A stretch of 58,097 nucleotides of DNA from a virus, in the IMG/VR virus record IMGVR_UViG_3300044684_000351, positions 1 through 58,097 of that record; one strand, written 5' to 3'. Both the position numbers and the translations under genes were made by a program. Positions 3,045-43,072 of this stretch are shown here, piece by piece. Each line of letters opens with the position of its first letter. Position 1 is the stretch's first letter. The notes beneath the pieces were generated by a model. The model ran no database searches and was not told the DNA's origin. It was given only the letters and a program-made list of their open reading frames with translations.

Positions 3045-3133
3045 GGGCGCGTGGCGAAGTTGGTTGAAACGCAACGGACTTAAAATCCGTCACATTAGAA
3101 ACATCGTGAGTTCAAATCTCACCGTGCCCACCA
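3045..3133 (+). tRNA. tRNA-Leu (anticodon UAA)
   Basis: A seven-pair acceptor stem (GGGCGCG with CGTGCCC), a five-pair anticodon stem (ACGGA/TCCGT) around loop CTTAAAA, a long variable arm typical of leucine tRNAs, T arm GTGAG-TTCAAAT-CTCAC and an encoded CCA end. It reads UUA, a codon common in the AT-rich small genes of this phage. Confidence 0.95.
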
Positions 3134-3137
3134 AATT

Positions 3138-3230
3138 GCGGAAGTAGCTCAATGGTAGAGCGGTGGATTTATAATCCATGATCGGCAGATTACCGAACGG
3201 TTGTGGGTTCAAGTCCCACCTTCCGCACCA
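3138..3230 (+). tRNA. tRNA with UAU anticodon (Ile by anticodon) and long variable arm
   Basis: It has a perfect acceptor stem (GCGGAAG/CTTCCGC), D arm GCTC/GAGC, anticodon stem GTGGA/TCCAT with loop TTTATAA (anticodon UAU, codon AUA), T arm GTGGG-TTCAAGT-CCCAC and an encoded CCA. The variable region is 23 nt and contains a TCGG/CCGA hairpin, which is a class II feature not expected in isoleucine tRNA. The charged amino acid is therefore uncertain. The gene lies four bases after the Leu tRNA. Confidence 0.85.
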
Positions 3231-40752: not shown

Positions 40753-42090
40753 TCACACTTGCCTTTCATGTTCAAGGATGAAGTTGATAACTTGTTCTGA
40801 AAAACCGTCGATGTGCACCCAGGGCCCGTAACCAACGCCGTTTTGCGCACTCGCGACGTTAATTATATATCCTTTACCTTTCGGCGCAGGGCAAGTTTGC
40901 AAAGCGCTTTGTTCAAAGTGTTGACGTTTAAATCCTGTAGTTTGTTCATCTGTAATAACTACAATGCGATCATAGGGAACTTTTTTATTAATTTCCTCAA
41001 TCGCATCAAAAAGTCTTGTACCGCCACGCGGACAATTATTAATCGCGTCCACTCCAGCCATTCCCTTTCGCGGCGGAACTTCGGTAATCACATCCGCAAA
41101 AGCAAAGACACGACAATTACCTGGGAAAATACTTGCAAGCGTGGCGGCGGCATCACGACGCGTTAGATCACTTTTAGCCGAAAGTCTTTCATTCATACTG
41201 CCACTCACATCTACAAGAATTGCCGTTCGGCCCTGCAATGTTTCCATTTGCATAATTCCGGTAAGCAACGCAGCGTCAAGTTCTGGCTCAAACATCGGCA
41301 CAATACGCGCCGCTGCAGTAAACCGAAACGGCAAAACCTTATCCGCGCCGCGCCGCTCAAGAATTGCGCCACGAATAAGATTTGCATCCACTCCGCTTTC
41401 CTGCATATTTCTCAAATTGCGCAGCAGCGCCAAATAACCCAACTTCTTTTCAAGCAAAAGCCGCGTAAAAGTTTCTTTTTTATTCGCGCCGCCAGAAAGC
41501 GCCACTTCCCAAGTATCAGGGCTTTCAAGCGTGCCGTTCATAAGTTTTTTCCACACTTCTTCCTGTTCCGCATTCGGCTTCGCATGAACAAGACGCAATA
41601 CGTCCCTCAGTTTTACTTGCCCGTCCCTATTGTACTTAGCAAGCTGATACGCATTAAACTTTCCAAATGCGCGTGCCAAACCCTTTTTCATCTGTGCACT
41701 GAGTGGAACTTTTCCATTCCTCCAATAAATCGCGCAAAGTTCCGTAAGTTCATCGGCGCGTTGAATAGTTTGGAAAATTGTTTCGGAAACAATAGAAGAT
41801 TTAACTCCCCGCTTCGCCAACGCACAAAGCAAAAGTAACGGAACGTGCCTCAAATTATACTTTTCCCGCGCTTCAATTGCCAGCGCCGCAAGTTCCGTAA
41901 CTTTCACTTCTTCGGCAAGTTTTTCAATTCTCGCCGCAATGCTTTGGCCATCTTCATAAAATTCATTTTCCCAAAGCAAACAAGAAAGAACAGAACGACG
42001 AAGCGCCTGCAAAGGCGTCAAATGCAAAAAAGCCGGCGCACCTTCATGGGTGAACACCGGCTTTGCTTGGGCAGTTACGTTAAGCTTCAT
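40753..42090 (-). CDS. rsr: Rsr, Ro60 orthologue (TROVE ring plus vWA domain)
   Basis: A 445-residue protein. Residues about 1-280 are helical HEAT-like repeats of a TROVE domain (LTPLQALRRSVLSCLLWENE, RHVPLLLLCALAKRG, FGKFNAYQLAKYNRDG). Residues about 285-440 are a von Willebrand A domain with MIDAS motif DVSGS and later GGTRLFDAI and VITDEQ. Ro60 forms a ring that binds misfolded RNA ends in its cavity and Y RNAs on its rim. Bacterial Rsr proteins work with RNases such as PNPase. AGGAG precedes the ATG. Upstream on the same strand lies a run of Y-RNA-like genes, which strongly supports the identification. Confidence 0.93.
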   Translation of the reverse strand: MKLNVTAQAKPVFTHEGAPAFLHLTPLQALRRSVLSCLLWENEFYEDGQSIAARIEKLAEEVKVTELAALAIEAREKYNLRHVPLLLLCALAKRGVKSSIVSETIFQTIQRADELTELCAIYWRNGKVPLSAQMKKGLARAFGKFNAYQLAKYNRDGQVKLRDVLRLVHAKPNAEQEEVWKKLMNGTLESPDTWEVALSGGANKKETFTRLLLEKKLGYLALLRNLRNMQESGVDANLIRGAILERRGADKVLPFRFTAAARIVPMFEPELDAALLTGIMQMETLQGRTAILVDVSGSMNERLSAKSDLTRRDAAATLASIFPGNCRVFAFADVITEVPPRKGMAGVDAINNCPRGGTRLFDAIEEINKKVPYDRIVVITDEQTTGFKRQHFEQSALQTCPAPKGKGYIINVASAQNGVGYGPWVHIDGFSEQVINFILEHERQV

Positions 42091-42138
42091 TTTTATTCTC
42101 CTATGTTAAAGAAATTTTTATTTCCTCCAACATAGAAG

Positions 42139-42220
42139 TAGTAAGGGAAAAGCGAAAAGAAGGTCGGAGCTACGCTCCAGCTTAGCAGGCTGGTGAACTT
42201 CTTTTCTACACCACTTACTC
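42139..42220 (-). ncRNA. Y-RNA-like RNA, unit 4 (short, anticodon-arm-like head)
   Basis: The ends pair (GTAAG/CTTAC), then a conserved asymmetric loop (TGGTGTA opposite GCTTTTCC), then GAAAAGAAG/CTTCTTTTC. The enclosed head is about 35 nt and can fold as CCAGC-CTGCTAA-GCTGG, identical in form to a tRNA-Ser(GCU) anticodon arm, or alternatively as GGAGC-GTA-GCTCC. It is the copy nearest the rsr gene. Confidence 0.72.
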
Positions 42221-42224
42221 TTTT

Positions 42225-42294
42225 ACGTCGGGGAAACAAGCGGGAACGGTTTTTCATCATGGCAGAAGTAACCGTCACCTACACCACCGAACAT
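42225..42294 (-). ncRNA. Y-RNA-like RNA, unit 3 (minimal head)
   Basis: The shortest copy. End helix ATGT(T)CGG/CCGACGT with one bulge, the conserved GGTGTA opposite GCTTGTTTCC, and an inner helix GGTGACGG/CCGTTCCC with one mismatch. The head is only about 22 nt and begins with the same TTACTTC as units 1 and 2. There is no tRNA-like part. Confidence 0.6.
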
Positions 42295-42304
42295 TTTATT
42301 TTGC

Positions 42305-42439
42305 TTTGAGAGGGAAAAGGCGACTACAGATAACAAACGCGCGCTAGACCACTACGCCACAGAACTTACGTTCCGGTAGGATTTGAACCTACGTCTCGTC
42401 TCCCCAAGAGAAGTAACTGTAATCTACACCACTCTCAAA
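42305..42439 (-). ncRNA. YrlA-type Y RNA, unit 2 (tRNA-like head)
   Basis: The ends pair as TTTGAGAG/CTCTCAAA. The loop TGGTGTA faces GCCTTTTCC, and the inner helix is GATTACAG/CTGTAGTC. The head is a permuted tRNA: T arm GTAGG-TTCAAAT-CCTAC, acceptor-like CGGAAC/GTTCTG capped by GUAA, and D arm GCGT-AGTGGTCTA-GCGC. An anticodon-stem-like CGTTT/AGACG leads back to the inner helix. The D arm and a CTTGGGG stretch look tRNA-Pro-like. No CCA end exists, so it should mimic, not act as, a tRNA. Confidence 0.85.
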
Positions 42440-42445
42440 CTTTGC

Positions 42446-42584
42446 AGGAAGGGAAAAGGCGAAAAGAGAACTGGCCGAAGCCAAAGTCAAATGCTCTACC
42501 ATCTGAGCTACAGAAAATTACTTTTCTGATCGGACTTGAACCGATGACCGTCTGATGAAGTAACTCTTTTCTGCACCACTTCCT
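42446..42584 (-). ncRNA. YrlA-type Y RNA, unit 1 (tRNA-like head)
   Basis: The ends pair as AGGAAG/CTTCCT. The loop TGGTGCA faces GCCTTTTCC, and the inner helix is GAAAAGAG/CTCTTTTC. The head is a permuted tRNA body: T arm ATCGG-TTCAAGT-CCGAT, acceptor CAGAAAA/TTTTCTG capped by GUAA, D arm GCTC-AGATGGTA-GAGC with G18G19 and A14/A21, and TTTGA/TCAGA in the anticodon-stem position. All tertiary-contact bases of a real tRNA elbow are present. A CTTTGG stretch and the order of arms recall tRNA-Gln. Confidence 0.88.
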
Positions 42585-42620
42585 AAACTTTTTCTCCTTT
42601 TCAACCATGGAGCGCGGAAA

Positions 42621-42689
42621 CTAAAAGGCGGGGTTAGAGGGGGCATTACCTTTTAGGTTCTATTGAAGGATCGTTTAAAGGCGATCCTT
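42621..42689 (-). ncRNA. Two hairpins in the Y-RNA leader transcript
   Basis: CTAAAAGG pairs with CCTTTTAG around a C-rich 20-base loop, and AAGGATCG pairs with CGATCCTT. They lie between the large structured RNA and unit 1. They may be processing signals, terminators, or a further small RNA. No uridine tract follows. Confidence 0.5.
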
Positions 42690-42780
42690 AATTGCATAGT
42701 AAGAAAAATAGTAAACTTTTAAACTCCAAGGAACTAATGCCAAAGAGATTTTTTACTTTAAATTTTCCTACCTCACGCGC

Positions 42781-42952
42781 TAAAGAAAATTAAGAAGGAA
42801 GGCGAATATCATTTTAAGGAACTCTAGCGTTCCACCTCTAACTTAGTCACTTGTCATCACAACAAGAAGTTTTGGCGATGATCTTCCCTATTCGCTGGGA
42901 CGGCTGATTAGGCCACTTTTGCCTTGCTTCCTACTTAATTTTCCTTTCTTTA
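42781..42952 (-). ncRNA. Large end-paired structured RNA, unassigned
   Basis: The ends of this 172-nt segment pair through AAAATTAAG/CTTAATTTT and GGAAG/CTTCC, with an outer TAAAG/CTTTA. Inside, GCGAATA pairs with TATTCGC, and local hairpins GGAAC/GTTCC and CTTGT/ACAAG are visible. The layout is Y-RNA-like (closed ends, internal GCC-TTCC strand), but the GGTGYA strand and a tRNA-like head are absent. It may be a divergent Y RNA or a different regulatory RNA. Confidence 0.5.
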
Positions 42953-42959
42953 TCGAAAT

Positions 42960-43018
42960 CGGAGCGGGAAGAGTTTAGGTGCAATACCATCAACTGTTTA
43001 ATACTACTTCCCGCTCCG
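42960..43018 (-). promoter_or_regulatory. 12-bp leader hairpin just after the promoter
   Basis: CGGAGCGGGAAG pairs perfectly with CTTCCCGCTCCG around a 35-base loop, some 27 bases downstream of the -10 box on the minus strand. It is likely at the 5' end of the Y-RNA transcript: an attenuator, a stabiliser, or another small RNA. Confidence 0.65.
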
Positions 43019-43044
43019 GGTGTCAGGAGTGCCCGACAAGAGAA

Positions 43045-43072
43045 AGCATACCAGAACGGGCGGCGCGTGCAA
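43045..43072 (-). promoter_or_regulatory. Sigma70-like promoter of the Y RNA-rsr operon
   Basis: On the minus strand TTGCAC, a 16-base spacer and TATGCT. The spacer and flank (GG before the -10 box) resemble those of the 40680 promoter. It would drive all the structured RNAs and rsr. Confidence 0.6.

What the first reader, a model, noticed from the sequence alone, without database searches (positions are those of the whole stretch)
42139..42584. Four tandem RNA units share one asymmetric internal loop with covarying helices
In each unit the order is outer helix, TGGTGYA (GGTGTA in unit 3), inner helix, variable head, inner helix partner, GC(C)TT(G)TTTCC, outer helix partner. Outer helices are AGGAAG/CTTCCT, GAGAG/CTCTC, TCGG/CCGA and GTAAG/CTTAC. 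Inner helices are GAAAAGAG/CTCTTTTC, GATTACAG/CTGTAGTC, GGTGACGG/CCGTTCCC and GAAAAGAAG/CTTCTTTTC. Sequences differ but pairing is kept, so the structure is selected. The invariant loop is the likely Ro-binding site.
Basis: seen in the sequence. Interest (0 to 1): 0.87.

Follow-up and report, generated by a model that had tools for sequence, protein, structure and literature searches.

The report
Four phage Y RNAs beside Ro60
This virus of bacteria carries four small structured RNAs next to its own copy of the Ro60 protein, an RNA-handling ring known from human autoimmunity; the RNAs belong to a known class (Y RNAs), and the study suggests that many RNAs of this class hold a complete, rearranged transfer RNA.

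Summary
Four tandem units (window 42141-42584, minus strand) lie directly 5' of a phage Ro60/Rsr (TROVE) gene. A covariance model built only from units of other genomes finds all four and nothing else in the window. In relatives the helices covary strongly (score 0.81 against 0.21 shuffled), and the motif sits on the TROVE strand in 77 of 80 further TROVE-bearing viral loci but in 0 of 41 control loci.

They are bacterial-type Y RNAs, a known kind also reported in phages. A conserved UUACUUC follows the inner helix in units 1-3. The heads of units 1 and 2 are tRNA mimics (T-arm, acceptor hairpin, D-arm). UGGUGYA is present in unit 3 too. Rfam's YrlA model does not recognise these units at its threshold.

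A by-product may be new: among 226 such heads from phages and bacteria, many hold a complete circularly permuted tRNA, anticodon arm included. The Ro-binding stem is inserted between the D-arm and the anticodon arm. Window unit 2 is of this kind, with a slightly imperfect anticodon stem. Whether this was reported before could not be checked, because the primary Y RNA papers are not held. Binding to Rsr and function are inferred, not shown.

The parts
42446..42584 (-). Y RNA unit 1: outer helix AGGAAG/CTTCCT, loop UGGUGCA / GCCUUUUCC, inner helix GAAAAGAG/CTCTTTTC, UUACUUC, YrlA-type tRNA-like head without anticodon arm
   Evidence: R1 45.7 bits; Rfam YrlA partial match 32 bits, below its threshold of 69
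42492..42545 (-). tRNA-like head of unit 1: T-arm ATCGG-TTCAAGT-CCGAT (42545-42529), acceptor hairpin CAGAAAA-GTAA-TTTTCTG (42528-42511), D-arm TAGCTCAGATGGTAGAGCA (42510-42492)
   Evidence: sequence; Rfam YrlA and tRNA alignments
42308..42436 (-). Y RNA unit 2: outer helix GAGAG/CTCTC, loop UGGUGUA / GCCUUUUCC, inner helix GATTACAG/CTGTAGTC, UUACUUC, tRNA-like head with anticodon-arm-like hairpin
   Evidence: R1 53.9 bits; Rfam YrlA 21.3 bits
42340..42412 (-). circularly permuted tRNA in unit 2: anticodon-arm-like TTCTC-TTGGGGA-GACGA (42412-42396, 4 of 5 pairs), T-arm (42392-42376), acceptor hairpin CGGAAC-GTAA-GTTCTG (42375-42360), D-arm (42359-42340)
   Evidence: ARAGORN calls mostly tRNA-Pro after permutation; pair counts
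42228..42290 (-). Y RNA unit 3, short head: outer helix TCGG/CCGA, loop UGGUGUA / GCUUGUUUCC, inner helix GGTGACGG/CCGTTCCC (one mismatch), UUACUUC
   Evidence: R1 56.0 bits; about 82% DNA identity to a unit in Xanthomonas phages
42141..42218 (-). Y RNA unit 4: outer helix GTAAG/CTTAC, loop UGGUGUA / GCUUUUCC, inner helix GAAAAGAAG/CTTCTTTTC; divergent head with CCAGC-CTGCTAA-GCTGG (42193-42177), like a tRNA-Ser(GCU) anticodon arm; no UUACUUC
   Evidence: R1 27.1 bits; fold z -3.3
40753..42090 (-). phage Ro60/Rsr protein: TROVE ring plus vWA domain, 445 aa
   Evidence: Pfam TROVE 60 bits; PHROG 850 RNA-binding protein; AlphaFold2 model matching Ro60/Rsr structures

Best explanation
The four units are phage-encoded bacterial-type Y RNAs, partners of the phage's own Ro60/Rsr protein. 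They sit as a leader array upstream of rsr on the same strand. Inferred steps: the array is transcribed with rsr and cut into separate RNAs. Each RNA binds the outside of the Rsr ring through the terminal stem with the bulged U, the GG/CC pairs and the UGYA / GCYU(G)UU loop. The head hangs free and sets what the ring can bind or which partner it is brought to. Units 1 and 2 carry YrlA-type tRNA mimics; units 3 and 4 carry small heads, as YrlB does beside YrlA in Salmonella. By analogy with Deinococcus radiodurans, the RNP most likely works with a host exoribonuclease such as PNPase, or another tRNA-acting host factor, to handle structured RNA during infection. Shown here: homology of units and protein, covarying helices, the fixed genomic link, and the tRNA-like architecture. 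Not shown: transcription, processing, binding, effector and phenotype. The confidence given is for 'Y RNAs that partner the phage Rsr'; for the decay or RNA-handling role with a host exoribonuclease it is about 0.45.
For: Neighbouring TROVE gene with Ro60 fold. Motif GTGGTGTAGN{4,9}GTTACTTC in viral contigs: 32 of 78 hits have a TROVE ORF within about 1 kb on the same strand (30 with the motif upstream), against 0 of 41 for a scrambled motif. R1 hits: 35 of 35 on the TROVE strand of TROVE loci and 0 in 41 control loci; 160 of 160 on the TROVE strand, in 77 of 80 further TROVE loci. Covariation. tRNA-like heads. Similar units beside bacterial rsr genes (37 of 52 loci with a paired unit). RYPER precedent and YrlA anatomy: PMC8394870, PMC4726728; phage Rsr with candidate Y RNAs: PMC12282133.
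Against: No sigma-70-like promoter was found upstream (0 against 1.6 expected), so transcription as described is unproven. Rfam YrlA stays below its threshold. No PNPase (RNase PH domain) or RtcB is encoded in the window, so an effector would have to come from the host. Unit 4 lacks UUACUUC and scores low.
Confidence: 0.9

Rival explanations
1. tRNA decoys: the tRNA-like heads, some with anticodon arms, act as competitive substrates or sponges for host tRNA-cutting or tRNA-modifying enzymes, with Rsr stabilising them. The phage would thereby blunt anticodon-nuclease defences.
For: Complete permuted tRNA architecture with anticodon stem-loops: U33 in 73 of 90 and R37 in 87 of 90 heads of modal length; many different anticodons. 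[quoted passage not shown]
Against: Units 1 and 3 of the window have no anticodon arm, unit 2's stem is imperfect, and the same architecture occurs beside bacterial chromosomal rsr genes. No nuclease was tested.
Confidence: 0.25
2. Cis-acting leader: the stem-loops mainly regulate rsr, for example Rsr binds its own leader and feeds back on expression or mRNA stability.
For: The array lies immediately upstream of rsr on the same strand, with a hairpin just before the ribosome-binding site.
Against: In several phages units lie downstream of TROVE (L013, L015, L021, L023; L055 and L092). Heads are elaborate tRNA mimics, and bacterial Y RNAs act in trans in the literature.
Confidence: 0.12
3. Ordinary or decaying phage tRNA genes misread as units.
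For: T- and D-arms are present; Rfam's tRNA model bridges the D-arm of unit 1 and the T-arm of unit 2; the phage's own tRNA cluster gives a weak YrlA match across a tRNA-Leu/tRNA-Ile junction.
Against: ARAGORN finds no tRNA here. Arm order is permuted: 103 of 160 heads are called tRNA after permutation and 1 of 160 in the native order. The flanking helices covary, and units 3 and 4 have no T- or D-arm.
Confidence: 0.02

Closest known systems
YrlA, bacterial Y RNA with tRNA-like domain (Salmonella, Mycobacterium smegmatis; Rfam RF02553)
   Same: Encoded beside rsr; stem joining 5' and 3' ends; T-arm, acceptor hairpin and D-arm in permuted order in the head (units 1 and 2).
   Different: Below the Rfam threshold (32 and 21 bits against 69). 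Unit 2 and many relatives add an anticodon-arm-like hairpin between the inner helix and the T-arm; YrlA is described as mimicking D, T and acceptor arms (PMC8394870).
YrlB / D. radiodurans Y RNA (Y RNAs without, or with a different, head domain)
   Same: A Ro-binding stem with a non-tRNA head, encoded with rsr, like units 3 and 4.
   Different: Head sequences not compared directly; no alignment to YrlB or the D. radiodurans Y RNA was made.
Vertebrate Y RNAs
   Same: A terminal stem interrupted by a single bulged nucleotide forms the Ro60 site (described in PMC4726728); here a bulged U follows the outer helix.
   Different: Bacterial Y RNAs are described as not homologous with the vertebrate ones (PMC4726728); different heads; a 3-nt bulge opposite in vertebrates.
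Phage Ro60 / Rsr: Thermus phage phiLo Ro60 (PDB 9l5y, 9kop); Listeria phage CKA15_055 with candidate Y RNAs
   Same: A phage TROVE protein; in CKA15, highly transcribed non-coding RNAs upstream on the same strand were proposed to be Y RNAs (PMC12282133).
   Different: The window protein is 26-28% identical to phiLo Ro60 over the structural alignment; CKA15's RNAs were not compared here.

Membership tests
Bacterial Y RNAs (broad) | encoded next to a Ro60/Rsr gene | tested here: met
   TROVE gene 40753-42090 on the same strand directly downstream; same link in 77 of 80 further viral TROVE loci
Bacterial Y RNAs (broad) | 5' and 3' ends paired in a conserved, covarying stem with a conserved Ro-site loop | tested here: met
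Bacterial Y RNAs (broad) | bound by Rsr in the cell | not testable with these tools
   needs co-purification or gel shift
YrlA subtype | tRNA-like module: T-arm, acceptor hairpin, D-arm | tested here: met
   units 1 and 2 only; units 3 and 4 lack it and are not filed as YrlA
Rfam RF02553 (YrlA model) | score at or above the gathering threshold of 69 bits | tested here: not met
   32 and 21.3 bits; the model also misses the units of ten related loci, so this reflects the model's narrow coverage; the units are not filed under RF02553
Ro60 / Rsr protein | TROVE ring plus vWA domain with DxSxS metal site | tested here: met
   Pfam TROVE; D294, S296 and S298 invariant in 27 sequences; AlphaFold2 model matching 9kop, 9l5y, 1yvp and 2nvo
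RYPER (Rsr - Y RNA - PNPase machine) | Y RNA tethers Rsr to PNPase | not testable with these tools
   no PNPase domain in the window; a host enzyme would be needed
Ordinary tRNA gene | linear order acceptor, D-arm, anticodon arm, T-arm, acceptor | tested here: not met
   ARAGORN none here; order permuted

The most novel reading that the evidence does not exclude
A major class of phage and bacterial Y RNAs are complete circularly permuted tRNAs: anticodon arm, 5-nt variable loop, T-arm, acceptor stem closed by a small loop, and D-arm. The Ro60-binding stem is inserted between positions 26 and 27. Phage arrays hold several with different anticodon loops and present whole tRNA surfaces, bound to Ro60, to tRNA-acting enzymes such as anticodon nucleases or modification enzymes.
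Probability: 0.4. Interest if true: 0.78.

Novelty: new member of a known kind. Interest (0 to 1): 0.55.

Why it matters
Ro60 and Y RNAs are central to human autoimmunity, yet their ancestral function is unclear and few bacterial systems are studied. The data show that Y RNAs are almost a fixed companion of phage TROVE genes (77 of 80 loci) and that the current RNA family model misses them. A usable covariance model and unit definition now exist. The anticodon-arm finding, if new, changes the picture of YrlA from a three-arm tRNA mimic to a whole permuted tRNA. It makes a direct test possible: does a phage Y RNA bait or block host anticodon nucleases?

Tried and rejected
Rfam at gathering threshold: no YrlA hit in the window or ten relatives. 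Search for further Y units in 42610-43050 with R1, filters off: nothing above chance, although that region folds strongly. Sigma-70 promoter scan: nothing. RtcB and PNPase in the window: none. Ordinary tRNA genes: rejected. Full texts of the key Y RNA papers (Chen 2014, Sim and Wolin 2018, Wang 2018): not held, so prior reports of anticodon arms in YrlA could not be excluded; text searches on YrlA with anticodon and on circularly permuted tRNA with Y RNA showed none among the listed papers of the held library. My first unit list used a nearest-match rule for the 3' element and mis-assigned some partners; it was replaced.

Full report
What is there. On the minus strand of the window four tandem stem-loop units (42584-42446, 42436-42308, 42290-42228, 42218-42141) lie between a diverging set of genes and a 445-aa gene at 40753-42090. 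Each has an outer helix, UGGUGYA, an inner helix, a head, the inner partner, GC(C)UU(G)UUUCC or a close variant, and the outer partner. Unit 3 also has the full UGGUGUA, and its inner helix has one mismatch. In the predicted folds of all four units the U of UGG is bulged and GG pairs with the CC of UUCC, so the loop proper is UGYA / GCYU(G)UU.

The neighbour is Ro60. The gene product matches Pfam TROVE at 60 bits and PHROG 850, RNA-binding protein. An AlphaFold2 model from 27 relatives (mean pLDDT 84) matches the Ro60 of Thermus phage phiLo (9l5y, 9kop), vertebrate Ro60 (1yvp, 2i91, 9nen) and D. radiodurans Rsr (2nvo) far above anything else over nearly the full length. The DxSxS metal site is invariant.

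The motif belongs to Ro60 genes. A pattern from the units, GTGGTGTAGN{4,9}GTTACTTC, gave 78 viral loci; 32 have a TROVE ORF on the same strand within about 1 kb, 30 of them with the motif upstream. A scrambled pattern gave 41 loci, none with TROVE. Most other hits to the real pattern are presumably chance, in line with the control count.

Covariation. 168 units were picked by sequence motif alone from 87 of 106 TROVE loci. Own arms pair at 5.1 contiguous pairs for each helix, against 2.9-3.0 for permuted partners (z 25 and 23). In a fixed-geometry, non-redundant set of 48 units, nearly every variable pair position has mutual information above all 1000 permutations. An alignment of 19 short-head units gives 94% of cells paired, 12 of 15 pairs with double changes, and a covariation score of 0.81 against 0.21 shuffled and at most 0.18 when slid. 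A caveat: units for one search were chosen with pairing as one criterion, so its percentage paired is inflated; searches did not use pairing.

Model test. The model R1 from those 19 units (none from the window) finds units 3, 2 and 1 at E 8.7e-13, 3.2e-12 and 4.8e-10 over the whole window with no other hit, and unit 4 at 27.1 bits in the local search. In 19 TROVE phage loci and 41 controls it gave 35 hits, all on the TROVE strand of TROVE loci and none in controls; a few of these loci supplied training units. In 80 further viral TROVE loci it hit 77, with 160 of 160 hits on the TROVE strand; in two of the three without a hit the TROVE match starts within 21 bases of the end of the held DNA (some of these contigs overlap earlier ones). 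A pairing-based detector found units in 37 of 52 bacterial rsr loci, 1 unit on opposite strands, and none in 772 kb of control sequence. These are therefore bacterial-type Y RNAs. Rfam's YrlA model scores 32 and 21 bits on units 1 and 2 against a threshold of 69 and misses the units in ten relatives.

tRNA-like heads. Unit 1 has T-arm, 7-bp acceptor hairpin and D-arm, as in YrlA. Unit 2 has the same plus a hairpin TTCTC-TTGGGGA-GACGA between UUACUUC and the T-arm, which looks like an anticodon arm (4 of 5 pairs, U33, purine 37). Cutting the acceptor loop and removing the stem makes ARAGORN call tRNA, mostly Pro, in 10 of 11 tested joins. Unit 4 has CCAGC-CTGCTAA-GCTGG, like a tRNA-Ser(GCU) anticodon arm, but an overlapping alternative pairing is predicted that keeps only part of it. 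Across 226 T-arm heads, 103 of 160 with an acceptor hairpin are called tRNA after permutation and 1 of 160 in native order; in the first, smaller set shuffles gave 0 of 714 constructs. In the 90 heads of modal length, the two variable anticodon-stem pairs are kept at 69 and 75 of 90 against 42 and 43 permuted. Loop positions follow tRNA rules (Y32 80, U33 73, R37 87, A38 59 of 90), and the following bases are most often AGGUC or GGUC, a canonical variable loop. Some anticodons (AUC, ACU, UUA) are not ones normally used in bacterial decoding (general knowledge), so decoding is probably not the constraint. The conserved UUC of UUACUUC is the 5' strand of this hairpin.

What it does. The literature held here says that Rsr binds Y RNAs through the lower stem, that YrlA mimics D, T and acceptor arms, that Y RNA tethers Rsr to PNPase in D. 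radiodurans, and that phages carry such RNAs or candidates (PMC12282133, PMC7790460, PMC4726728, PMC8394870, PMC7765460). The best reading is a phage RNP of Rsr with several exchangeable Y RNAs, using a host effector because the window encodes neither PNPase nor RtcB. I put about 0.9 on 'Y RNAs that bind the phage Rsr', about 0.45 on an RNA-decay or RNA-handling role with a host exoribonuclease, and about 0.25 on a tRNA-decoy role; these last two need not exclude each other. Transcription, processing and binding are not shown; no sigma-70-like promoter was found.

Novelty. The array is a new member of a known kind. The anticodon-arm architecture may be a new variant; I could not read the primary papers to check. 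My recollection that YrlA is described as having the Y stem in place of the anticodon arm is from memory and agrees with PMC8394870, which lists only D, T and acceptor arms.

Noticed in passing
window 42610-43050, minus strand: A further strongly structured non-coding stretch upstream of the array (fold z -4.5): a 12-bp hairpin near 43020-42960, a long branched helix near 42945-42772, and another near 42760-42690. It holds no Y RNA core and no Rfam family.
   Followed up: partly
window 42093-42132, minus strand: A long hairpin lies between unit 4 and the start of rsr, enclosing a GGAGGA and followed by a second AGGAG before the ATG; possibly a processing or translation-control element.
   Followed up: no
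L019 3331-3398; L018 2628-2695; L016 3266-3340: tRNA genes annotated beside TROVE in phages 10KY502B, CcrColossus and Kikimora lie in the Y RNA arrays and look like misread Y RNA heads (the Rfam tRNA model also hits L019 3331-3398 weakly).
   Followed up: partly
L016 6841-7186: Brevundimonas jumbo phage Kikimora seems to encode a permuted (two-piece) tmRNA near its TROVE gene (Rfam RF04321, 57.7 bits).
   Followed up: no
window 3084-3194: The junction of tandem tRNA-Leu and tRNA-Ile genes gives a weak YrlA match (23 bits): T-arm of one tRNA followed by D-arm of the next is YrlA order, hinting that YrlA heads could have arisen from a tandem tRNA junction.
   Followed up: no
L013, L015, L021, L023, L055, L092: In some phages the Y RNA units lie downstream rather than upstream of the TROVE gene, on the same strand.
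   Followed up: partly
window 42228-42290 and L019/L020: Unit 3 is about 82% identical over 67 bases to a short-head unit of Xanthomonas phages, although the phages' TROVE proteins are only about 56% identical; the short-head unit may be under extra constraint.
   Followed up: no
short-head units in alignment A3: Short heads share a pattern UUACUUC-N(5-9)-(GAU)GAAA, so the UUC may pair with GAA as it pairs with GAG/GGG in anticodon-arm heads.
   Followed up: partly
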